Shown piece by piece: positions 4,782-38,300 of a stretch of DNA of 64,000 nucleotides (its first letter is position 1; each line of letters starts with the position of its first letter). Origin of the DNA: a virus; IMG/VR virus record IMGVR_UViG_3300037391_000017, positions 1 through 64,000 of that record. One strand, 5' to 3'. Below the pieces are notes generated by a model that saw only the letters and a list, made by a program, of their open reading frames with translations, had not been told where the DNA came from and ran no database searches. Both the position numbers and the translations under genes were made by a program.

Positions 4782-6083
4782 TCAATCTTCCTCAACCTCA
4801 AACGCCGCACGTGCGGGCAGTTCCACACTGTCGTCGTCCAAGCCCGTCATGTAACGCTCAGTATCCGCATCAACTTCCATGATGTGGCGTCCCGTTTCGT
4901 CGTTGCGGACGGCTTCCTTGACCAGCACCCGCAGTTTGGCAAGCACTTCAGGATTCTGCTTGATGACGAGATCGTCGATGGCCGCTTCCTGATCGGGGTA
5001 GCCTGCAATGGCTTCCTCAGCCGATTTGCCGACGAACCACTTCTTGCCCACGTTGCTGATGAAGCCGTAGTCACGAGCAAGATCACGGACGGTAACGTTG
5101 TCGTCGAATCCGATGCCTTTACGTAGGTACATCGAGCCTTCACGGTAACCGCCGCCGTTGGTCTTGTTCTTCAGGATGCGAACCTTGATACGAGTCGCGG
5201 CGAAGTCCTGTAAATCACCCTTGACGCCAGTGCCGGGTTCGAGCAGGAATGCATCTTCCTGTTCGCTGCCTGCACGGATGGCTTTGTGCGTCATCGTCTC
5301 GATCATCACGCTGGGCGTGAAGCGGCAGGTCTTGCCGCCCGGAAGGATGTAAGGTAGGTTGGTGAAAGATGGGTACTTGATGGCGTACTGAGCGTCCTTC
5401 GTGGATTCAATACGTGCGCGGGGCTGGTTGACCATGAGGAATACGCAATCATAGCGGGCCGCTGGGGTCAACATGTTCTTGAAGAAACATTCCATCGCAC
5501 GGGCGTGTTCACCCGGCGTAGTCTTGTGGGATTTCTTAACATCCATGACGATCTTGCGCTCAACCTCTTCGCGCATACGGACGATGGAGTCGAATACGAA
5601 CAGGCGGACACCACCTTCCATGAATTCGAGGGTGCGCTTTTCGGCGTCCTGAATGCTATCCGGCATTATGAGTTCGCAACTGCCATCATCAACGCCGATC
5701 TTGTGGAGGTAGTTCCAATCGCCTGTACGCTCAAAGTCGAAAATGACCGCAGGCTCACCAGTGAACTTCTGATATGCGCTGACGATGCCGTAGGTCAGGG
5801 TGGACTTGCCACTGTGCTCGTTTCCGTGGATTTCAATGACACGTCCACGGCGGGGCATACCGTCCAAACCGCAAACGTCGTCAAGGGTGACGAATCCATA
5901 CGGAATACGCTCTTCCGCCACGTTGGGGTCAACGACTCGATAGTCTTTCTTGTTGCCCGCACGAGCCTTGGCGAACAGGGCGCACCGCTCCTTCGCGCTG
6001 AGTGCCCGAACCGCCTGAAAATCTACTCCCTTTACTTCTGCTTTTGCTTTCTTTGGCACGTTTTCCTCCGAACTAAACGACAA
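4782..6083 (-). CDS. RecA/UvsX-family recombinase
   Basis: 433 residues with a RecA-fold core. Walker A is GNEHSGKST (about 87-95); FDFERT and LFVFDS strands follow, then VNQPRA at the position of the RecA L1 region. The family forms ATP-dependent filaments on single-stranded DNA and drives strand exchange in repair and replication-dependent recombination. It is followed by the endonuclease and overlaps the upstream RuvC-like gene by 11 bases, so it belongs to a resolvase-recombinase operon started at 7215. The N-terminal 60 residues are basic and not obviously conserved. Confidence 0.85.
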   Translation of the reverse strand: MSFSSEENVPKKAKAEVKGVDFQAVRALSAKERCALFAKARAGNKKDYRVVDPNVAEERIPYGFVTLDDVCGLDGMPRRGRVIEIHGNEHSGKSTLTYGIVSAYQKFTGEPAVIFDFERTGDWNYLHKIGVDDGSCELIMPDSIQDAEKRTLEFMEGGVRLFVFDSIVRMREEVERKIVMDVKKSHKTTPGEHARAMECFFKNMLTPAARYDCVFLMVNQPRARIESTKDAQYAIKYPSFTNLPYILPGGKTCRFTPSVMIETMTHKAIRAGSEQEDAFLLEPGTGVKGDLQDFAATRIKVRILKNKTNGGGYREGSMYLRKGIGFDDNVTVRDLARDYGFISNVGKKWFVGKSAEEAIAGYPDQEAAIDDLVIKQNPEVLAKLRVLVKEAVRNDETGRHIMEVDADTERYMTGLDDDSVELPARAAFEVEED

Positions 6084-30355: not shown

Positions 30356-30431
30356 TGGGGGCGTTTACGGGAGTCGAACCCGCCATCATGTGATTGAAAG
30401 TCACAGGTCCAAGCCGATAGACGGAAACGCC
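30356..30431 (-). tRNA. tRNA-Glu(TTC)
   Basis: Complete cloverleaf: acceptor GGCGTTT/AAACGCC, anticodon arm TGTGA CTTTCAA TCACA, T arm with TTCGACT, CCA encoded. Reads GAA. Last gene of the block. Confidence 0.9.
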
Positions 30432-30608
30432 ATGTTTCTAAACTCTGCGGTTGTTGTCCACAACCCCTGCAAGGGCAGCGACCTTCAACCGCTTTGGGAC
30501 TTGGCTGTACCAAAATCCGTACACTTCACGTTTGCAGACGTTGCTGCACGAACATCGCGGGTATTCGCCGTATTCCCCGCCAGCCTAGAGGAAACTACCC
30601 CCTAATCT

Positions 30609-30684
30609 TGGTACGCCGTGTTGGACTCGAACCAACGGTCTCTACCTTGTCATGGTAGCGATTTAGCCGCTAATCTAACAGCGC
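30609..30684 (-). tRNA. tRNA-Val(GAC)
   Basis: Acceptor GCGCTGT/ACGGCGT (terminal G-U), D arm GATT/AATC, anticodon loop ATGACAA, T loop TTCGAGT, CCA encoded. Reads GUC/GUU. I see no gene in 30432-30608. Confidence 0.88.
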
Positions 30685-30686
30685 AC

Positions 30687-30775
30687 TGGTGTACCCGAGA
30701 GGGATCGAACCTCCGACCTGCTTCCAGCAACCCGAAGGCTGATGGAAACCGCTCTGCCAGTTGAGCTACAGGCAC
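30687..30775 (-). tRNA. Aberrant tRNA with UUCG-capped extended anticodon arm
   Basis: Normal acceptor (GTGCCTG/CGGGTAC), D arm (GCTC/GAGC), T arm and encoded CCA. In place of a 5-bp stem and 7-base loop it has a hairpin of 12 pairs with one U-C mismatch, closed by C(UUCG)G. If the tip opened, TTCGGGT would read as a Pro(CGG) loop, but the stem would be far too long for the decoding site. It is either a non-decoding tRNA or contains an insertion. Confidence 0.7.
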
Positions 30776-30846
30776 AAACAAACTGGTGGAAAGGAAACCC
30801 CGGCAAGGATTTTACATTGCTACATGTCTGCAACAACCCACCCGTA

Positions 30847-31056
30847 CTATTTCTGAGCTTCTCGGATTGCTCGTAGAAGCGCATTCTGCGAAGCATCCTC
30901 GGGCAAACCATACTCCAAGTTCGCCTTCTTCAAATGTGCATCCCTACGCAACCCCGTATCGATACCGAACTCGTCTTCGAAGGTTCCGACGTGCTTGTCG
31001 TTACGTGTCTTGCGAATCTGACCATCTTCATCTGTAGAACGATCATCTAGTCCCAT
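30847..31056 (-). CDS. Small charged protein
   Basis: 69 residues with a strong AGGAGG site before ATG at 31056. Rich in Asp, Lys, Arg and Glu; no hydrophobic core and no family recognised. Inserted between tRNA genes. Confidence 0.55.
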   Translation of the reverse strand: MGLDDRSTDEDGQIRKTRNDKHVGTFEDEFGIDTGLRRDAHLKKANLEYGLPEDASQNALLRAIREAQK

Positions 31057-31071
31057 ACAGCCTCCTAAACT

Positions 31072-31147
31072 TGGTGGACCCGAGGGGATTCGAACCCCTG
31101 ACCTCCGCAGTGCGAGTGCGGCGTTCTCCCAACTGAACTACGAGCCC
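31072..31147 (-). tRNA. tRNA-Ala(CGC)
   Basis: Acceptor GGGCTCG/CGGGTCC with the G3-U70 alanine identity pair, anticodon arm CCGCA CTCGCAC TGCGG, CCA encoded. Reads GCG. Its first ten bases are also the end of the nuclease gene upstream. Confidence 0.92.
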
Positions 31148-31539
31148 AACTCAAAATCTTTCGCCCAACGGATACCGTCACGCTGGTTGTTCTTCGACGG
31201 TGCCAAACGCAACTGGCATCCAGCGATAGGCGCATCTATCACGGGAATTACGTACACCTTATCGAGTTCCACGCAATACACCGCAAACAAATCCGCATCC
31301 CCACGATAGTCCCGACGTGGACAATTTCGAGATTGGCTACAGGTGTCAAATCTTAAAACAGTACGACCCCTGCACAGACGCCCTTTCTTCACTTGAATCC
31401 GCACGGCGTTCGCACCATCCAGAGTCACCAAATCGTACCGCTGGGCGTCCCCAAATGGGACCAGAACCTCTTTACCGTTTCTTACCAGTGCCGCCAGTAC
31501 AGCGGCCACAGCCATGTTTCCCGCTTGAGAGCTATTCAT
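31138..31539 (-). CDS. PD-(D/E)XK homing-endonuclease-like protein (I-Ssp6803I type)
   Basis: 133 residues. GKEVLVPFGDAQRYDLVTL followed by VRIQVKKG (D36, Q49-V50-K51) is the compact PD-(D/E)XK core of group I intron-type endonucleases such as I-Ssp6803I. Such enzymes cut short conserved targets, often in tRNA genes. Its stop codon TAG is formed by tRNA-Ala(CGC) bases 8-10. A TGATAGAAT extended -10 box ends six bases before ATG. Confidence 0.65.
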   Translation of the reverse strand: MNSSQAGNMAVAAVLAALVRNGKEVLVPFGDAQRYDLVTLDGANAVRIQVKKGRLCRGRTVLRFDTCSQSRNCPRRDYRGDADLFAVYCVELDKVYVIPVIDAPIAGCQLRLAPSKNNQRDGIRWAKDFELGS

Positions 31540-31545
31540 CTCTCC

Positions 31546-31551
31546 ATTCTA
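31546..31551 (-). promoter_or_regulatory. Extended -10 box (TAGAAT)
   Basis: TG-A-TAGAAT, then GGAGAG and the ATG at 31539. Confidence 0.45.
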
Positions 31552-31557
31552 TCACAC

Positions 31558-32625
31558 CTACTCGCCCGCGATAACCGAGTGTAGGGGAGAGGACGGCTCC
31601 CACACGAGCTTCCCATCCGTTGCCCCTCCATCTTTCGCATGTTTTTCAGCAGTTGCCTTGAGCAGCGCGGCCACACTATCCAGATTCGCAAGGTGCGGTG
31701 TAATCGGGCCATGTTCTAGGCAATCCACCGTGAAGAAACGAAATCCAAAATCCGTGCCTTCTGATGCTTCACATCGCCGCCCACACTGCGGACAAACGAT
31801 GAAAGTCTCACTATGCCCGTCCTCCTCCACCTTTACCATGATCTTGAAATCCATTATCACTGGCTCGGCTGGCGTTTCCTCGCGATTATACGCAGGTGCG
31901 GTATGCCGGGATGAATCCTTCTGCCAATCAATATCCCACCGACGAAACACAGAACCCGAAGCTACCAACTTCGCCGCCATGTAATTGAAATAGTAATCGC
32001 GCAATTGATCCACCACGGGAGACACTTTCTTATCTTTGAGTAGCGGTGCCCAAGGGTACGCCCAGCGCCCGTTGTCCATCTTAATTTTCATGTTCGCCGA
32101 CATCACCACGATAGCCTGCACGTGCGGAAGAGACTCCTTTCCAGTATCTTTCTTGTACTTGAGCATAATCCGTTCGCACAGAATCAAGAAATCTGTTGGG
32201 TGATGTAGACGATTATTCTCGTTCGCAATCAAAACGAGTCCGAAAGCATCTGGCTTATTCAGACGGCGCTTGGACGCCTTGATCTGGAAGTTGGCTTTGA
32301 GGATGTGGTTCTTAATGGATGGTTCCAGCAGAGCACACCACTCGTCTTGTAGGTCAAGGGACAAGTCTTTCAACCTGAGCATCGTCTGCCCAATCGGAGC
32401 AACGCGGCCCGACGCCTGCCAACGTGCAAACATATCCGTTAATGCCGCGTAGTATTCGTCTGACGGGTCTTCCAGCAGCGTCTTTTGCTCCACGATCAAG
32501 TTGAGGTCGGGATACCAGTAATCTGCGCTCGGCTCACCCTCTTCGGTGGAGAACGGGATTAGGGTTCCTCCGACAGCGACCGTGATGTCACGCCACAACT
32601 GCTCCGACTTTGCAAACTGAAACAT
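31558..32625 (-). CDS. PD-(D/E)XK nuclease-like protein with C-terminal zinc site
   Basis: 355 residues from ATG at 32625, chosen for the GGAGG site; the frame runs further upstream only through tRNA sequence. YWYPDLNLIVEQKTL contains a canonical PD-x5-E-x-K (D40, E46, K48). CPQCGRRC near residue 275 and a later CLEHG suggest zinc binding. Such architecture is found in phage homing or restriction-like nucleases. It lies between tRNA-Val(CAC) and the smaller nuclease gene. Confidence 0.5.
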   Translation of the reverse strand: MFQFAKSEQLWRDITVAVGGTLIPFSTEEGEPSADYWYPDLNLIVEQKTLLEDPSDEYYAALTDMFARWQASGRVAPIGQTMLRLKDLSLDLQDEWCALLEPSIKNHILKANFQIKASKRRLNKPDAFGLVLIANENNRLHHPTDFLILCERIMLKYKKDTGKESLPHVQAIVVMSANMKIKMDNGRWAYPWAPLLKDKKVSPVVDQLRDYYFNYMAAKLVASGSVFRRWDIDWQKDSSRHTAPAYNREETPAEPVIMDFKIMVKVEEDGHSETFIVCPQCGRRCEASEGTDFGFRFFTVDCLEHGPITPHLANLDSVAALLKATAEKHAKDGGATDGKLVWEPSSPLHSVIAGE

Positions 32626-32641
32626 ACGTCCTCCGTGAACT

Positions 32642-32717
32642 TGGTGCACCTTGCAGGATTTGAACCTGCGACTCCCACCGTGTGAAAGTGGTACTCTGGC
32701 CGCTGAGTTAAAAGTGC
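32642..32717 (-). tRNA. tRNA-Val(CAC)
   Basis: Acceptor GCACTTT/AAGGTGC, D arm ACTC/GAGT, anticodon arm CCACT TTCACAC GGTGG, T loop TTCAAAT, CCA encoded. Reads GUG. Confidence 0.9.
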
Positions 32718-32723
32718 AAAACT

Positions 32724-32799
32724 TGGTAGCGTTGATGGGAGTCGAACCCACCGTCATTGCATTGAGAGTGCAAGGTCCAAACCGATAGACGGCAACGCC
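32724..32799 (-). tRNA. tRNA-Glu(CTC)
   Basis: Acceptor GGCGTTG/CAACGCT (terminal G-U), anticodon arm TTGCA CTCTCAA TGCAA, T loop TTCGACT, CCA encoded. Similar to tRNA-Glu(TTC) at 30356, suggesting duplication. Reads GAG. Confidence 0.9.
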
Positions 32800-32869
32800 A
32801 CAATCATATAATTGGCCCTTTTAGTGAAATTCTTCACGGTTTTGGCCGTTTTATACGACGTAATAAACT

Positions 32870-32945
32870 TGGTGGACCTAAGGGGGGTCGAACCCCTGAC
32901 CTCATCCATGCCATGGATGCGCTCTCCCAACTGAGCTACAGGCCC
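32870..32945 (-). tRNA. tRNA-Ala(GGC)
   Basis: Acceptor GGGCCTG/TAGGTCC with G3-U70, anticodon arm CATCC ATGGCAT GGATG, T loop TTCGACC, CCA encoded. Reads GCC/GCU. Confidence 0.92.
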
Positions 32946-32948
32946 AAA

Positions 32949-33356
32949 TTACCACTCCCAAAGTTTCGCGTCGATGTACTCCGCGATGTTGTTCTTTGGA
33001 CGTTCGTACCGCAACGTTAAAACCGATTGTCCATCCCACAAAACCGCTGGGAGCATGTAAACTTTATTCGTTTGCGGCGAGTACGCTGCGATGAAATCAA
33101 CCTCAGCCGCCGTATACTTTTTCCGCTTCTTGTTGTGACCGATGGACGACACTTTCACTTGGAAGCTGCCACTCGTTGCTTTGGACGATGCTCCCGCGTA
33201 CTTAACCTGCACACGAGACAGCTTCCCGTCCACATCCATCACTAAATCGTAGCGGCAATTCTCCGTTACGGGGCGACTCATCATGACGCCCTTTTCAATT
33301 GCGCGGAGCAGAACCCTAAGAATGGCCTGCTCACCCTTGGTCGTGGTTATATCCAT
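32949..33356 (-). CDS. PD-(D/E)XK homing-endonuclease-like protein
   Basis: 135 residues from ATG at 33356. CRYDLVMDVDGKLSRVQVKYA (D37, Q50-V51-K52) matches the 133-residue nuclease at 31138 in order and spacing, so the two are paralogues of the I-Ssp6803I-like group. The start is set by TGTGGTATCAT ending six bases upstream. It ends three bases before tRNA-Ala(GGC). Confidence 0.65.
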   Translation of the reverse strand: MDITTTKGEQAILRVLLRAIEKGVMMSRPVTENCRYDLVMDVDGKLSRVQVKYAGASSKATSGSFQVKVSSIGHNKKRKKYTAAEVDFIAAYSPQTNKVYMLPAVLWDGQSVLTLRYERPKNNIAEYIDAKLWEW

Positions 33357-33362
33357 CTTACG

Positions 33363-33368
33363 ATGATA
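33363..33368 (-). promoter_or_regulatory. Extended -10 box (TATCAT)
   Basis: TG-G-TATCAT followed by six bases and the ATG at 33356. Confidence 0.5.
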
Positions 33369-33378
33369 CCACAAAATC

Positions 33379-33453
33379 TGGAGCGAGTGGTGGGATTCGA
33401 ACCCACGACCTGATGGTTGGGAACCACCTATTCTACCACTGAACTACACCCGC
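33379..33453 (-). tRNA. tRNA-Gly(CCC)
   Basis: Acceptor GCGGGTG/CACTCGC, D arm GTTC/GAAT, anticodon arm GGTGG TTCCCAA CCATC, T loop TTCGAAT, U73, CCA encoded. Reads GGG. Confidence 0.92.
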
Positions 33454-33511
33454 AGCGGGTGCGAGAAGGGGCTCGCGTCGTCTCGGCTCCGTTTAGCCGA
33501 ACCCGTAATCT

Positions 33512-33586
33512 TGGAGCGGACAGCGGGGCTCGAACCCGCGACCTCATCCTTGGCAAGGATGCGTTCTACCACTGAACTATGTCCGC
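33512..33586 (-). tRNA. tRNA-Gly(GCC)
   Basis: Acceptor GCGGACA/TGTCCGC, anticodon arm CATCC TTGCCAA GGATG, T loop TTCGAGC, U73, CCA encoded. Reads GGC/GGU. Confidence 0.93.
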
Positions 33587-33717
33587 ACTACGTGTGTCCC
33601 AGTCGGTCGGCTTTCACCACAATTGGTTCGGATTTCTCGGAACCAACGCCCCTGTTGGGGATCGAGTCTCGCAGCCGCAGCTACGGCGTTTTTCACTTTC
33701 GTGTCCACGCGGATCAC
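33577..33717 (-). CDS. Doubtful small ORF ending inside tRNA-Gly(GCC)
   Basis: 46 codons from a GTG at 33717, basic, no clear ribosome site. It is listed because its TAG stop is bases 8-10 of the tRNA, as in two better supported genes of this block. Confidence 0.2.
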   Translation of the reverse strand: MIRVDTKVKNAVAAAARLDPQQGRWFREIRTNCGESRPTGTHVVRT

Positions 33718-33793
33718 ACGGGTTACTTATTTGGGGAGGATGGGCGTTACTCCAGTTTTGACCTCCGTCCAACAACGGAGCCTCCCCTAATCT

Positions 33794-33868
33794 TGGAGCG
33801 AGCAACGGGAATCGAACCCGTCTCTGTGGCTTGGAGGGCCACGGCACCGCCAGTTATACCTTACTCGC
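33794..33868 (-). tRNA. tRNA-Gly(TCC) with C33
   Basis: Acceptor GCGAGTA/TGCTCGC, anticodon arm GTGGC CCTCCAA GCCAC, T loop TTCGATT, U73, CCA encoded. The nearly universal U33 is C and position 8 is A instead of U. Reads GGA if functional. Confidence 0.8.
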
Positions 33869-33881
33869 TTAAAGTATTCGT

Positions 33882-34252
33882 GTTGAACCTATAGCCGGGA
33901 TTCTGTCGCGGACGACCATTCCTCTAGGCGTTGCATCACTACAACGCTCAAGCACCCTACCCGCTGATTACCCGCCTCTTGCGAAGCGAACGGATCGAAC
34001 ACAATCCTGCTCAGCCTATTTGGGCTTCTGCACGTGGAGATTGCTCGTTTCACCCGAACTGAATCGGCTCGTCTCTGTAGCTCTAATCGTCAACACCCTT
34101 GCGGGTGCCGCCCAGCCGTTAGCTGGCACGCTGTTCTTTGCAGTCCCGAACTTCCTCCCCTGCGCTCAACGCCGGACTTGGTTGGGAAGGCTTTCGCCAA
34201 CGCTTCCAAGCACAGGACGTATATCTACGCAGCGGCGGTCGTCCAGTTCAAC
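33882..34252 (-). ncRNA. rnpB: RNase P RNA, bacterial type
   Basis: On the minus strand the conserved blocks occur in order: GGGGAGGAAGTTCGGGA (CR I), GTGCCAGCTAACGGCTGGG (P7-like hairpin region), GCCCAAATAGGC (CR III), GTGCTTGAGC, CCTAGAGGAATGGTCGTC (CR IV) and GACAGAATCCCGGCTATAG (CR V). The ends pair as P1 (GTTGAACT with GGTTCAAC). CR I lacks one A compared with the usual GAGGAAAGTCC, and P4 keeps pairing with a changed base pair. RNase P RNA is the catalytic subunit that cuts 5' leaders from pre-tRNAs. It lies inside the phage tRNA block on the same strand. I did not find a protein-subunit gene in this window. Confidence 0.93.
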
Positions 34253-34331
34253 ACAAATTTTCAAAGAGCCTACTATACTAGGCGAAAGCTGACCTTCTGC
34301 CTCTAAAGCCCAATATGCTAGGCTTTAATCT

Positions 34332-34407
34332 TGGAGCACCCGGTCGGTGTCGAGCCGACTCAGTAGTGGTTTTGCAGACCACCGCGTTCCCGTTTCGCCA
34401 CGGATGC
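34332..34407 (-). tRNA. tRNA-Cys(GCA), copy 1
   Basis: Acceptor GCATCCG/CGGGTGC, short D stem, anticodon arm GTGGT CTGCAAA ACCAC, U73, CCA encoded. The T loop is CTCGACA, with C instead of T at position 54. Confidence 0.85.
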
Positions 34408-34433
34408 AAACTTTTTGAAAGCACTCGACTCGG

Positions 34434-34452
34434 TAGGGTTCGATTCCTACAT
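34434..34452 (+). other. Orphan T-arm-like sequence on plus strand
   Basis: GTAGGGTTCGATTCCTAC resembles a tRNA T arm on the strand opposite the block, but no matching acceptor or anticodon arm exists upstream. Perhaps a tRNA remnant. Confidence 0.3.
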
Positions 34453-34529
34453 AAGCGCACAACCACCACGCTATTTATTGGAACAGGCGATTTAGCCTGC
34501 CTTAACTTACGTCTGGCGCTCTCAAAGCT

Positions 34530-34606
34530 TGGCGGTGACGGGGGGATTTGAACCCCTATATTCTCCCGTGACAGGGGAGCCCATTAGCCAGTTATGGTAC
34601 GTCACC
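34530..34606 (-). tRNA. tRNA-Asp(GTC), copy 1
   Basis: Perfect acceptor GGTGACG/CGTCACC, D stem CCAT/ATGG, anticodon arm CTCCC CTGTCAC GGGAG, G73, CCA encoded. Reads GAC/GAU. Confidence 0.9.
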
Positions 34607-34612
34607 AAAATT

Positions 34613-34691
34613 TGGCGGGGACGACGGGATTTGAACCCGCGATCTCTTCCGTGACAGGGAAGCATGTTAGACCGGGCTACACCACGGCCCC
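34613..34691 (-). tRNA. tRNA-Asp(GTC), copy 2, archaeal-like D arm
   Basis: Anticodon arm CTTCC CTGTCAC GGAAG, G73, CCA encoded, acceptor GGGGCCG/CGTCCCC with a C5-U68 mismatch. The D arm GTGTAGCCCGGTCTAACAT is unlike the other phage tRNAs and close to what I recall of euryarchaeal tRNA-Asp. Confidence 0.85.
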
Positions 34692-34705
34692 GCATTACAA
34701 AAACT

Positions 34706-34780
34706 TGGAAGCGGCGGCGAGAATCGAACTCGCGAATAAAGACGTTGCAGGTCTCGACCTTACCACTTGGCTACGCCGCT
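34706..34780 (-). tRNA. tRNA-Cys(GCA), copy 2
   Basis: Acceptor AGCGGCG/CGCCGCT, anticodon arm GAGAC CTGCAAC GTCTT, T loop TTCGATT, U73, CCA encoded. Confidence 0.9.
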
Positions 34781-34793
34781 GTGAATCTAAAAT

Positions 34794-34868
34794 TGGTGGA
34801 CACGGGGGGATTTGAACCCCTTCTTTCACTTTGCAAGAGTGACGCATTCCCAGTTATGCTACCGGCCC
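34794..34868 (-). tRNA. tRNA-Ala(TGC), copy 1
   Basis: Anticodon arm TCACT CTTGCAA AGTGA, G3-U70 present, CCA encoded. Acceptor pairs 5-68 (C-U) and 6-67 (G-G) do not match. Its first ten bases end the coding gene upstream. Confidence 0.85.
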
Positions 34869-35086
34869 ATTTTTGCTGGCTTCGCGACACTCTTCAACGT
34901 GCCGTGAGTCAGATCAAACTCTAATTGCCGAACCACCATCTTGTCCATCTTGTCGAGGACTTCATCCTCGGTGTCGGCAGTCGCAACTAATCCCAACGTC
35001 GGGTGCCACGCTTGGAAGCCCCAATCCTGTCTCTCGACCTCTACAGTCGTGACCAGCTTTACGATACGTGATCTGTTGCGTTTCAT
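34859..35086 (-). CDS. Small HicB-like protein
   Basis: 75 residues. The WGFQAWHPTLGLVATADTEDEVLDKM segment resembles the HicB/DUF1902 fold (strand, strand, helix) used by antitoxins and small regulators. No partner toxin is adjacent. The stop TAG is formed by bases 8-10 of tRNA-Ala(TGC). Confidence 0.45.
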   Translation of the reverse strand: MKRNRSRIVKLVTTVEVERQDWGFQAWHPTLGLVATADTEDEVLDKMDKMVVRQLEFDLTHGTLKSVAKPAKMGR

Positions 35087-35101
35087 CTTTCAATCCAATC
35101 T

Positions 35102-35177
35102 TGGTGCGCCGGGTGGGACTCGAACCCACGGTAGTCGTCTTGTAAGGGCGATGCTTTAGCCGCTAAGCTACCCGCGC
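35102..35177 (-). tRNA. tRNA-Val(TAC)
   Basis: Acceptor GCGCGGG/CCGGCGC with a G5-G68 mismatch, D arm GCTT/AAGC, anticodon loop CTTACAA in a stem with one C-A mismatch, T loop TTCGAGT, CCA encoded. Reads GUA. Confidence 0.88.
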
Positions 35178-35193
35178 AAATTTTACCGCAAAA

Positions 35194-35222
35194 ACAAAAA
35201 GGACGCTCTGTTTGAGCGTCCT
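35194..35222 (-). terminator. Rho-independent terminator
   Basis: AGGACGCTC (35200-35208) pairs with GAGCGTCCT (35214-35222); TTTTTGTTTTT follows on the minus strand. It ends the 43-residue ORF unit before tRNA-Val(TAC). Confidence 0.8.
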
Positions 35223-35246
35223 CGGAAACCGTTGATTTGGAAGTTG

Positions 35247-35378
35247 TTACTCTCCAAACCCTCCCGAGGACACCATATCTCCTACCGCCGCCGCGTCAGC
35301 GGCGACAGTACCGCGTTCGGCTGCGCTACACGCTGCGACCGTCACGATAACACCTGCGTTTTGGAGATTGGAGTTCAT
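35247..35378 (-). CDS. Small Ala/Val-rich peptide
   Basis: 43 residues from ATG at 35378, between a GGGTATTATAG promoter-like box (about 35392-35400) and a strong terminator, so it sits in its own transcription unit. Function unknown; the unit could instead be a non-coding RNA. Confidence 0.4.
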   Translation of the reverse strand: MNSNLQNAGVIVTVAACSAAERGTVAADAAAVGDMVSSGGFGE

Positions 35379-35443
35379 AAGCGTCTCTGTACTATAATAC
35401 CCGAATTTCAAAAACTTGCAACAACTATTTTTCAGAAAAGAGC

Positions 35444-35560
35444 GAGAGCCTATGTCCTGCACCCGCGTTGCGGGAAAACTAAGCGGACAAACGCCGTCTC
35501 CGACCGACCTAACGCGAGGGCATGATCCCCGTTCGCTTATCGGCTCTCTTGCTGGTGCAG
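35444..35560. ncRNA. Candidate structured RNA with pseudoknot potential
   Basis: GAGAGCC (35444-35450) pairs with 35542-35548, and CTGCACC (35457-35463) pairs with 35554-35560, two 7-bp helices that cross. TAAGCG (35480-35485) pairs with CGCTTA (35534-35539), and CCCGC/GCGGG forms a local hairpin. No ORF or known family recognised; strand unknown. Confidence 0.4.
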
Positions 35561-35600
35561 CTTCATCAGGCGGATGAGCGCCAACTGCATCAGCGAAACT

Positions 35601-35676
35601 TGGTGGACCTGAACGGGCTCGAACCGATGACCTCTTCCTTGCAAAGGAAGCGTTCTCCCAACTGAACTACAGGCCC
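35601..35676 (-). tRNA. tRNA-Ala(TGC), copy 2
   Basis: Acceptor GGGCCTG/CAGGTCC with G3-U70, D arm GTTC/GAAC, anticodon arm CTTCC TTTGCAA GGAAG, T loop TTCGAGC, CCA encoded. First gene of the tRNA block. Confidence 0.92.
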
Positions 35677-35697: not shown

Positions 35698-35820
35698 ATG
35701 CAACAAATCCCCCAATTCATTCGCATCCCTCAGGACGGTGACACGTACCTGTGGTCGGGGGTCTGCGGGACATACTCTAAGGCTGTCACGCCCTATCGCC
35801 TTTCGGCTGAGCAGCGGTAA
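35698..35820 (+). CDS. Possible 40-residue plus-strand protein
   Basis: The translation (IPQFIRIPQDGDTYLWSGV, then YSKAVTPYRLSAEQR) looks protein-like, but there is only a weak AGGT ribosome site and no promoter. Nothing else is seen between 35677 and 35862. Confidence 0.3.
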   Translation: MQQIPQFIRIPQDGDTYLWSGVCGTYSKAVTPYRLSAEQR

Positions 35821-35862
35821 ACCGCAGGCATACACTAATACAATACCGTAGTCTGGGCATTT

Positions 35863-36108
35863 TTACAAGCGAGTCGTGACTTCTTTGTAGATGCCGTCTA
35901 TTCGCTCAACGAATCCGCTGATGCCTGTGTGCTGCTCCAGCCAGCGAGTCGTCTGGTTGCCCTTGCGGGCGTCCATCAACTTGTGCAGCCGAAGCGCCAG
36001 CGTGCGGGCCTTCTTCTCGTCACCGCATGTGTGTCGCACGTACTCATGGCGCGGCGAAGCGTCGTAGTTGTAGACCAACAGGTTGATGTAAATTTTGTCG
36101 CTCTTCAT
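35863..36108 (-). CDS. Hypothetical protein
   Basis: 81 residues from ATG at 36108 (GGAGG site nine bases upstream); translation coupled to the upstream membrane peptide by ATGA. Mixed alpha/beta, basic. No family recognised. Confidence 0.55.
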   Translation of the reverse strand: MKSDKIYINLLVYNYDASPRHEYVRHTCGDEKKARTLALRLHKLMDARKGNQTTRWLEQHTGISGFVERIDGIYKEVTTRL

Positions 36109-36454: not shown

Positions 36455-36522
36455 GGTTCTCCTGTCTAAACTTTGGGGCACGCTGGTTTCATCCAAGACG
36501 TGTCTAGAATCCCCGCCGACCG

Positions 36523-36804
36523 TTAGGGAATATTTGCGAGGAGAACGACATCAGCCCAATTGTTTTCTCCGGGCTCGTCTGTGTCGTTCCAATCCTCACG
36601 TTCCCAATGTGTGTCGTCTTCACGACCGTTCCACAGCTTGTTATCGCGGACTTTGGTCACGCGAATATCTCGTACTGGACGCGGCCCCCACTCGGCATCG
36701 CCGCGAAGGACTGGCGTCTCCGGTGAAAGTTCCCCACGCTCGACGCGAGCCTTGAGTGCTTCCACCTGTTCGATCAACTGCCCGAGATTGATTCCAGTGT
36801 CCAT
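36523..36804 (-). CDS. Hypothetical acidic protein
   Basis: 93 residues. It starts with a Leu/Glu helix and continues with Trp/Asp/Glu-rich sequence. The LSPETPVL..DAEWGPRPV segment resembles small phage proteins with a beta core. No clear ribosome site. It lies at the end of the ORF-less region and could be translated from that transcript. Confidence 0.45.
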   Translation of the reverse strand: MDTGINLGQLIEQVEALKARVERGELSPETPVLRGDAEWGPRPVRDIRVTKVRDNKLWNGREDDTHWEREDWNDTDEPGENNWADVVLLANIP

Positions 36805-37300
36805 TTGATTGACTGGCGGCGATCACAGGGACTTCACGCTCCCACCTTGTCCGCGAGTAATGGAGGCTGGCCTAGCCTACTCACGTGACGCCTTTGTCCT
36901 GTAGACCGCTGCTAGTAAATCAAAAAGCTTGTGTGACCTCAGCCTAGCACTAGGGGGTTTCAGGGGCAAACCAGCAGCCGAACTGTCTGGCGGCATTCCT
37001 ACACCTGTGCATTGCTCACCGAAGCCACAGCAAGATCAAAAGTGGGGAGGGCGGGGTGCAGGATGACCGCAACTTCTTCGACCAGTAAACCACGTCTGGC
37101 TGTTAACGGCGTCCTGCACCCCAAATGTTGTGGGTCGGTTGATTGCCGACCAGTTGAGCGTTGTTTCCGAGGCCGTAGCCTATAGAGGTCGAGTCGTTCA
37201 GTTCGTACCCATTGTGTCCACCCCTCAGATGGTTACGCTGTCGCCTATTATCGGAAATTCACAAGCCGTGCGACACCGCGCCTGTTACTGTGTATCAACG
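36805..37300 (-). ncRNA. Candidate large structured RNA driven by a phage promoter
   Basis: About 500 bases with no credible ORF on the minus strand, immediately downstream of a shared-motif promoter (37306-37333). Long-range pairings are visible: GGGGTGCAGGA (37053-37063) with 37112-37122, GGTCGG (37133-37138) with 37146-37151, and TGTCGC (37239-37244) with 37270-37275. Size, phage origin and position near a tRNA block are what is known for GOLLD and ROOL RNAs, but I cannot confirm a match. It may alternatively be a long leader of the 93-residue gene. Confidence 0.45.
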
Positions 37301-37305
37301 ATACA

Positions 37306-37333
37306 ATTATACCAAACCCAAAGGGGGAATCGC
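37306..37333 (-). promoter_or_regulatory. Shared-motif phage promoter of the RNA candidate
   Basis: TATAAT at 37306-37311, GCGATT at 37328-37333 with 16 bases between, preceded by ATTCCTA. No start codon follows within 90 bases, unlike the other four. Confidence 0.65.
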
Positions 37334-37346
37334 TAGGAATCTGAAA

Positions 37347-38300
37347 CTATTTTTTCGTGGTGCCATCCGCCAGCGGAACCAGCTTCCAGTTGGCGACCAG
37401 CGCGTCGTGGAACTGGATGTCACCCTTGAGGCTGCTGATCTTGAACTCGGTGCGGTCGATCTCGGACTCGCGGATTTCGTTGTACTCGCGGGTGCCCTTG
37501 TCGAACGTCTCGACGGTGACCAACGGCTTCTTGCCGTAGCCCTGATAGGTTTCCTTCGTGCGTTCCAGCGTCGGCATGGTGCTGTTCTTCAACGATTTCA
37601 GGTATTGCTGTGCGGACTTGAGCGCGGGGCGAAGGTACTGCGCCAACCACTGCTTGTTGCCTTCGCACGAGAACTCGTAAGGCAGGAACGCGCAACCGAA
37701 GCAGCTACCGATGCGGTAACCAGCGTGGTTGTATTCCGACATCTGGTAGCCGTGATGAACCATCTTCTGCTCGGCGGTGAGTTTCTGGCGGTTCTGGCAG
37801 ATGGTGCAGATGCCAGTGTTGGCGATCTCTTCCGCGATCTGAGCGGCGGTCTTGTTGGTCACGTTCGGCTTGCGGCCCTTCTTGATGATCGGCTTGAACG
37901 ACTTCAAGAACTGGAATAATTCGTTGATCTGATCGAGGGTCTCGATGTAGGTCACGAGGCCCGCAGTCTTCTGGTCGGTGGGCAGTTTCTTCAAACGGCG
38001 GCTCAGCTTGGCGGCTTGGTTCATACCGAAAGCGTAGCCGATGTCGTGGCGGGGGTCGGACGAAGGCAGTTCGCGGCGAATGTCGCGGGAGATCGCACCG
38101 TCAGCGGCGATATGCTGCGCGTGTTCGCAACCAGACGAGACATACGACTTCGCGTTCAGGAATTCTTGGTTGTAGATTTCGCCAGCGGCGAGTCCAGCTT
38201 CAAGAGTCTGGATGGCAGCGAGGAAGCGGTCACCCTGCGTGAAGGCGGAACGGATGTACGGGGTGCTGAAGGTCACCGTGATTTTGTCTGTGTTGTTCAT
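37347..38300 (-). CDS. Hypothetical Cys-containing protein
   Basis: 317 residues. CTICQ (about residue 165) and a later CFGCAF with intervening His residues suggest a zinc site in the middle. N- and C-terminal parts are helical and basic. Leaderless-type mRNA from the shared-motif promoter. No family recognised. Confidence 0.55.
   Translation of the reverse strand: MNNTDKITVTFSTPYIRSAFTQGDRFLAAIQTLEAGLAAGEIYNQEFLNAKSYVSSGCEHAQHIAADGAISRDIRRELPSSDPRHDIGYAFGMNQAAKLSRRLKKLPTDQKTAGLVTYIETLDQINELFQFLKSFKPIIKKGRKPNVTNKTAAQIAEEIANTGICTICQNRQKLTAEQKMVHHGYQMSEYNHAGYRIGSCFGCAFLPYEFSCEGNKQWLAQYLRPALKSAQQYLKSLKNSTMPTLERTKETYQGYGKKPLVTVETFDKGTREYNEIRESEIDRTEFKISSLKGDIQFHDALVANWKLVPLADGTTKK

What the first reader, a model, noticed from the sequence alone, without database searches (positions are those of the whole stretch)
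36805..37333. 500-base ORF-less transcript upstream of the tRNA block
A shared-motif promoter drives a stretch with no plausible protein and several long-range pairings (one 11-bp helix with a 48-base loop). Large phage RNAs of the GOLLD and ROOL classes are known near tRNA genes, but I recognise no signature, so this may be a new large RNA or an unusual leader.
Basis: partly seen in the sequence, partly recalled or inferred. Interest (0 to 1): 0.7.

Follow-up and report, generated by a model that had tools for sequence, protein, structure and literature searches.

The report
Phage leader RNA before attenuated tRNA arrays
The stretch begins with a real, apparently undescribed structured RNA found in six giant phages, and following it led to something larger: these phages appear to switch on blocks of their own tRNA genes only when ribosomes run slow on the matching amino acids.

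Summary
Observation largely confirmed. A TTCCTAGC..TATAAT promoter (37339-37306, minus) precedes an ORF-poor stretch whose proximal half (37299-37044) is conserved; the distal half (36805-37043) is not. The ~70-nt core (37188-37120) recurs once per genome in five other huge phages, always upstream of a tRNA array with RNase P RNA. Core identity is 76-97%, against 31-74% at third codon positions of the adjacent gene; half its base pairs covary (0/500 shuffles). No Rfam match at E<=5, so not GOLLD or ROOL.

The larger result lies 1.7 kb downstream. Five classes of tRNA array in these phages are preceded by a short leader peptide, an intrinsic terminator and a competing antiterminator: ribosome-mediated attenuation. 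Each peptide is rich in the amino acids of the tRNAs that follow: Ala/Val/Gly/Asp/Glu/Cys, Ile/Thr/Gln, Tyr/Leu, Ser, Gln/His/Arg/Asn/Lys. 18 of 18 leaders fit their own array best (0/20,000 shuffles). I found no report of this in one open-access library.

The function of the finding's own RNA is inferred only: best guess, a cis-acting leader of the island transcript, perhaps bypassing the attenuator.

The parts
37306..37339 (-). Promoter: TTCCTAGC box and TATAAT, A/T-rich stretch upstream; same motif class as the promoters of the tRNA-array leaders
   Evidence: 0.00 expected by chance; conserved in relatives; similar boxes before array leaders
37044..37299 (-). RNA-1, conserved leader RNA; transcript start about 37299 inferred from the promoter, 3' end unknown
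   Evidence: Similarity to L002 and L003 stops at 37044
37198..37212 (-). Minigene ATGGGTACGAACTGA (MGTN*); MRN* at the same place in L119
   Evidence: Start, stop and upstream AACCATCTGNGGGGTG kept in window, L002, L003 and L119
37184..37226 (-). Possible helix P1: Shine-Dalgarno of the minigene (37226-37218) with an anti-Shine-Dalgarno (37189-37184); the tRNA-like insert of L002 and L003 sits inside this loop
   Evidence: Read from the alignment; one-sided changes only, so weak; not predicted by RNAalifold
37120..37188 (-). RNA-1 core: hairpin A (37181-37170, UACG loop), linker CGGAAAC.., hairpin B (37151-37133), tail
   Evidence: R1 model hits in six phages; covariation 0/500 shuffles
37053..37122 (-).
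   Evidence: z -2.8; shared with L002, rearranged in L003
36805..37043 (-).
   Evidence: No similarity in four relatives
35835..35853 (-). Conserved promoter-like motif GACTACGGTATTGTATTAG upstream of the first tRNA
   Evidence: conserved region with L002 and L003
35394..35421 (-). Promoter-like sequence of the attenuator (TTGCAA-16-TATTAT)
   Evidence: Read from sequence
35247..35378 (-). Leader peptide ORF, 43 aa, rich in Ala, Val, Gly, Asp, Glu, Cys
   Evidence: 27 of 42 residues, P 1.6e-4 against phage proteins; relatives in five phages
35218..35271 (-). Antiterminator: 35271-35264 with 35225-35218, inner helix 35260-35253 with 35241-35234
   Evidence: -46.1 kcal/mol, 0 of 200 shuffles as good; pairs kept with changes in relatives
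35190..35221 (-). Intrinsic terminator: stem 35221-35214 with 35208-35201, then TTTTTGTTTTT
30356..35676 (-). tRNA array (Ala, Val, Gly, Glu, Asp, Cys only) with RNase P RNA at 34254-33876; 15 of the 16 called tRNAs lie after the attenuator

Best explanation
The finding is the promoter-proximal leader of the phage's RNA island: a new conserved structured RNA (RNA-1), about 255 nt here with a ~70-nt core. SHOWN by sequence: the core is an RNA-level element under strong selection, one copy per genome, upstream of the tRNA/RNase P array, with no intrinsic terminator detected in 37300-35500. That array, and four other classes of array in these phages, carry the anatomy of ribosome-mediated attenuation: a leader peptide rich in the amino acids of the array's own tRNAs, an intrinsic terminator just before the first controlled tRNA, and an antiterminator that can form only if the ribosome lags. 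So tRNA genes should be transcribed when the matching aminoacyl-tRNAs are scarce (logic inferred from anatomy). INFERRED for RNA-1: it acts in cis on transcripts from its own strong promoter. A ribosome may load on the minigene, whose Shine-Dalgarno can be masked downstream, and the hairpin A-linker-hairpin B core may act on the transcription complex as HK022 put RNA does, so that these polymerases pass the attenuator terminator and give a supply of tRNA and RNase P RNA that does not depend on starvation. My estimates: RNA-1 is a real RNA element 0.95; attenuation of the arrays 0.9; RNA-1 is a cis-acting leader 0.5; put-like bypass specifically 0.25. The score below is for the cis-acting-leader reading as a whole.
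For: Six phages keep 317-aa gene, RNA-1, tRNA array with RNase P RNA in this order. Core 76-97% identical against 31-74% at third codon positions next door; covariation 0/500, five of ten pairs changed on both sides. One copy per genome. No terminator-like site on the minus strand between 37300 and 35500, and no T-run directly after hairpin B in any member. Attenuator: 18 leaders in five array classes match their arrays (0/20,000; 1 of 120 in one phage); antiterminators at least as strong in only 0-3 of 200 shuffles in 11 of 11; scan without tRNA positions: 10 of 14 attenuator-like sites lie 28-46 nt before a tRNA array.
Against: No expression data. The other arrays have no RNA-1 copy although they have the same attenuator, which weakens a bypass role. 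L016 has no recognisable promoter, and its core sits 10 nt before a ribosome-binding site; L004 and L016 lack the minigene. The core resembles put RNA only in size, number of hairpins and position; sequence and linker differ. A separate promoter-like sequence precedes the attenuator, so RNA-1 transcripts need not feed it.
Confidence: 0.45

Rival explanations
1. RNA-1 is a stand-alone, trans-acting noncoding RNA (a small RNP or regulatory RNA) that lives in the phage's stable-RNA island, like the RNase P RNA and the tmRNA.
For: One copy per genome, own strong promoter, no ORF attached in L004 where promoter plus core is only about 90 nt; variable peripheral domains, including a tRNA-like domain in two members, as in GOLLD linkers (PMC12286853).
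Against: No terminator or conserved 3' end in any member; in L016 the core directly precedes a ribosome-binding site and ORF; no target pairing found with RNase P RNA.
Confidence: 0.3
2. RNA-1 is a cis-regulatory leader of the small-ORF operon right after it (a riboswitch-like or protein-binding translational control), with no role in tRNA expression.
For: In window, L002, L003 and L016 small ORFs follow; hairpin pair with an invariant linker is a common protein- or ligand-binding layout; the conserved upstream 317-aa protein could be the binder.
Against: Distance from core to first ORF varies from about 10 to over 300 nt, the following ORFs differ, and L004 has none.
Confidence: 0.2
3. The amino-acid match between leader peptides and tRNA arrays is coincidence or composition, and the terminators are ordinary ends of upstream transcripts.
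For: Ala, Val and Gly codons are G+C-rich; phages share ancestry, so leaders of one class are not independent; array classes were delimited by eye.
Against: Ile/Thr/Gln, Tyr/Leu, Ser and Gln/His/Arg/Asn/Lys leaders follow their own arrays within one phage (best of 120 assignments); antiterminators conserved with compensatory change; terminators end 2-15 nt before a tRNA, leaving no room for a promoter in between.
Confidence: 0.05

Closest known systems
Ribosome-mediated transcription attenuators of amino-acid operons (trp, his, leu, thr type)
   Same: Leader peptide rich in the regulated amino acids, terminator, antiterminator overlapping the terminator's 5' arm and masked by a ribosome at the stop codon
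   Different: Controls tRNA genes, not biosynthetic enzymes; in phages; one leader can sample five or six amino acids; several units per genome, each matched to its array
HK022 put RNA
   Same: About 70 nt, two hairpins, close downstream of a phage promoter, no conserved protein next to it in sequence terms (compared with PMC9378689)
   Different: Long single-stranded linker between the hairpins, other sequence, minigene upstream; activity untested
GOLLD and ROOL
   Same: Phage RNAs near tRNA genes; tRNA-like domains inside some members
   Different: No Rfam match, far smaller conserved part, no common structure found
Phage minigenes such as lambda bar (from memory)
   Same: A ribosome-binding site followed by an ORF of a few codons
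   Different: Other codons, embedded in a structured RNA, function unknown

Membership tests
GOLLD | Match to the Rfam covariance model | tested here: not met
   No match at E<=5 on 36500-37400 or on L002 RNA-1
GOLLD | Size of about 800 nt with a conserved 3' half | tested here: not met
   Conserved part about 255 nt here, about 90 nt in L004
ROOL | Match to the Rfam covariance model | tested here: not met
   No match at E<=5
Ribosome-mediated attenuator (array leaders) | Leader peptide enriched in codons for the product of the controlled genes | tested here: met
   18 of 18, 0/20,000 shuffles
Ribosome-mediated attenuator (array leaders) | Intrinsic terminator before the first controlled gene | tested here: met
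Ribosome-mediated attenuator (array leaders) | Mutually exclusive antiterminator whose 5' side lies at the end of the leader ORF | tested here: met
   0-3 of 200 shuffles as good in 11 of 11; compensatory change in L119
Ribosome-mediated attenuator (array leaders) | Readthrough depends on translation of the leader | not testable with these tools
   Needs an experiment
put RNA | Sequence and structure of known put elements | tested here: not met
   Linker of about 14 nt or more between the hairpins against adjoining stems in put (PMC9378689); no sequence-model test was made
put RNA | Antitermination without a protein factor | not testable with these tools
   Needs in vitro transcription
T-box leader | Match to the Rfam covariance model | tested here: not met
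   No match in the window at gathering threshold or at E<=5 in RNA-1
Theta (HDV-like) ribozymes of phage tRNAs | Cleavage site within 5 nt of a tRNA | tested here: not met
   RNA-1 core lies about 1.4 kb from the nearest called tRNA (criterion from PMC10879173)

The most novel reading that the evidence does not exclude
A clade of huge phages sorts its tRNA genes by amino acid into arrays and makes several of them sense their own product through matched leader-peptide attenuators, so tRNA supply follows translational demand or host tRNA loss; RNA-1 is a second, RNA-only cis element that lets polymerases from a strong promoter ignore the attenuator and supply tRNA and RNase P RNA unconditionally.
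Probability: 0.25. Interest if true: 0.95.

Novelty: new variant of a known kind. Interest (0 to 1): 0.85.

Why it matters
Why large phages carry tRNAs, and whether they regulate them, is an open question. Attenuators whose leader peptides spell out the array they control would mean that these phages measure aminoacyl-tRNA shortage during infection, amino acid by amino acid, and answer with the matching tRNAs. That gives a direct, testable link to codon usage, host shut-off and tRNA-cutting defences. RNA-1 adds a new conserved RNA of unknown function to the same island.

Tried and rejected
GOLLD, ROOL, T-box and other Rfam families: no match. Overlooked protein: no shared frame, a single-base indel, and the core's third positions do not vary freely. 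Pairing of RNA-1 with the phage's own RNase P RNA: an 11-nt match in the window, but no better than shuffles in any of five phages. RNA-1 as a terminator-ended small RNA: hairpin B has no adjacent T-run. Further viral pattern hits (L005, L008, L010-L012, L022, L024, L025, L117, L118, L120-L128) were judged chance, mostly inside coding sequence where inspected, although some score up to 21 bits with R1, as high as L016; L016 is accepted because of its position as well. Five genome-collection pattern hits (L129-L133) score 14-21 bits with R1; they were preselected by the pattern, their contexts were not inspected, and they are not claimed as members. Phages with a more distant relative of the 317-aa protein (Tunturi_5, two Brevundimonas phages, Myxococcus Mx1, LR745208) have no clear RNA-1 and no RNase P RNA. 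Five tmRNA-bearing contigs gave no RNA-1 hit, but all are likely fragments. A related contig (G006) has an Ile/Thr/Gln array without an attenuator, and no leader was detected before the Pro/Met/Phe or the Lys/amber tRNAs, so attenuation is not universal.

Full report
WHAT WAS CHECKED. The stretch 36805-37333 lies between a 317-aa gene (38300-37347, minus) and a run of small ORFs, upstream of a tRNA array on the minus strand. The record is a 103-kb virus fragment. The 11-bp helix with a 48-base loop is exactly there (37122-37112 with 37063-37053). The full stretch does not fold better than shuffles, and Rfam gives nothing at E<=5.

RELATIVES. The 317-aa protein led to L002, L003 and L004 and L016. 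A DNA pattern from the core led to L119 in a 456-kb contig. In all six phages the order is the same: 317-aa relative, RNA-1, tRNA array with a class A RNase P RNA. Five phage records with a more distant relative of the protein have no clear RNA-1 and no RNase P RNA. Similarity to the window's stretch stops at 37044; the distal 36805-37043 is private to this phage.

ANATOMY OF RNA-1. The core (37188-37120) is hairpin A with a UACG loop, an unpaired CGGAAAC-type linker, hairpin B, and a YAAC-UUU tail. Core identity is 76-97% between five phages; third codon positions of the adjacent gene are 31-74% identical in the same pairs. On the six-member alignment all cells are paired and five of ten pairs change on both sides; no shuffle of 500 reaches the covariation score, and slid structures do not either. 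The alignment was fitted to a model built from three of the six, which favours the structure, but the compensatory changes come from the other members. L016 is the weakest member (21 bits); unrelated pattern hits reach the same score, so its membership rests on its position as well. Upstream of the core is a Shine-Dalgarno with a minigene, MGTN* in three phages and MRN* in L119, and a possible anti-Shine-Dalgarno. L002 and L003 carry a degenerate tRNA-like domain at that point, with an 11-nt and an 8-nt loop in place of an anticodon loop, so it is unlikely to decode. L004 has only promoter, a small hairpin and the core, about 90 nt.

THE ATTENUATORS. Between the first tRNA and tRNA-Val of the window's array lies a 43-aa ORF (35378-35247), MNSNLQNAGVIVTVAACSAAERGTVAADAAAVGDMVSSGGFGE, with its own promoter-like sequence, then a strong terminator (stem 35221-35201, T-run to 35190) just before tRNA-Val (35177). 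The array's called tRNAs are only Ala, Val, Gly, Glu, Asp and Cys. A segment at the end of the ORF (35271-35264) pairs with 35225-35218, which overlaps the 5' arm of the terminator. A ribosome reaching the stop codon covers that segment and lets the terminator form; a ribosome slowed upstream leaves it free. That logic is inference from textbook attenuation; the anatomy is shown. The same unit is present in all six phages. Other arrays have their own: Ile/Thr/Gln (MKQTLQTRTTTTQRITTRVRVGVSEGMDPV in the window's own record), Tyr/Leu (for example MTHVTLSPSLRLYSLYLSYRRGGVFKG), Ser (MVRIHALSSSSSSSRSGSGGVGVCL) and Gln/His/Arg/Asn/Lys (MTAKSSRKHQRRNNRWFGTGLFSEGWGA).

TESTS OF THE ATTENUATORS. Antiterminator folds are matched by only 0-3 of 200 shuffles in all 11 leaders tested. 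In L119 the pairing segment changes on both sides, GUCCUCGG/CCGAGGAC to GCCCUCGG/CCGAGGGC. A scan of four records that did not use tRNA positions found 14 attenuator-like sites among 65 terminators; 10 lie 28-46 nt before a tRNA array, two are tmRNA 3' ends, two look like chance. All 18 leaders fit their own array best; no shuffle of labels in 20,000 does as well, and in the one phage with five such arrays the true assignment is the best of 120. The amino-acid sets came from the tRNA calls, but the limits of the arrays were drawn by eye after seeing the leaders, and related phages are not independent; the 1-in-120 figure is the most conservative.

HOW IT PROBABLY WORKS. For the arrays: demand-controlled tRNA synthesis by attenuation (0.9). 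For RNA-1 itself, a cis-acting leader is favoured over a free RNA because no member has a terminator or a conserved 3' end, and no terminator-like site was found between it and the array in the window. A put-like bypass of the attenuator is my preferred mechanism but only at about 0.25; the comparison with put rests on size, number of hairpins and position (PMC9378689). Against it, the other arrays have no RNA-1.

NOVELTY. I searched one open-access library and found no account of attenuated phage tRNA arrays. The huge-phage survey PMC7162821 reports tRNAs and tmRNA; its main text holds neither 'RNase P' nor 'leader'. Subscription papers and preprints were not searchable, so novelty is provisional. 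Attenuation is a known kind and its use for phage tRNA arrays is the new variant; RNA-1 is a new RNA of a known kind (orphan structured RNA).

LIMITS. Transcript ends are inferred. The shuffles keep base composition only.

Noticed in passing
window 33876-34254 (-); also L002, L003, L004, L016, L119: Class A RNase P RNA (RF00010, 139-189 bits) inside the tRNA array in all six phages, absent from five phages with a more distant relative of the 317-aa protein.
   Followed up: partly
G000 record 93612-94012 (+), L027:9612-10012; also G001 and G003: Permuted tmRNA gene, tag ATAPKAMAAHA in this phage.
   Followed up: no
G000 record 99326-103328; G001 129024-133551; G003 191550-197683; L137; L139; L140: tRNA genes are sorted by amino acid into separate arrays, up to 64 tRNAs in one phage; several have a CTA (amber) anticodon, and some show four-base anticodon calls.
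   Followed up: partly
window 35758-35868 (-); L002 6713-6900; L003 5885-6000: A second conserved noncoding region with its own promoter-like motif GACTACGGTATT just before the first tRNA.
   Followed up: no
L002 6997-7163; L003 6177-6338; L016 8343-8508: A 167-nt stretch 87-90% identical between very different phages, next to the first tRNA, absent from the window; function unknown.
   Followed up: no
window 37347-38300 (-): The 317-aa neighbour has conserved Cys/His positions resembling a zinc-binding motif; distant relatives occur in phages of Tunturiibacter, Brevundimonas, Serratia and Myxococcus.
   Followed up: partly
L119 about 4890-5020: A tRNA-like gene with an apparent insertion, not called by ARAGORN, between RNA-1 and the first called tRNA.
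   Followed up: no
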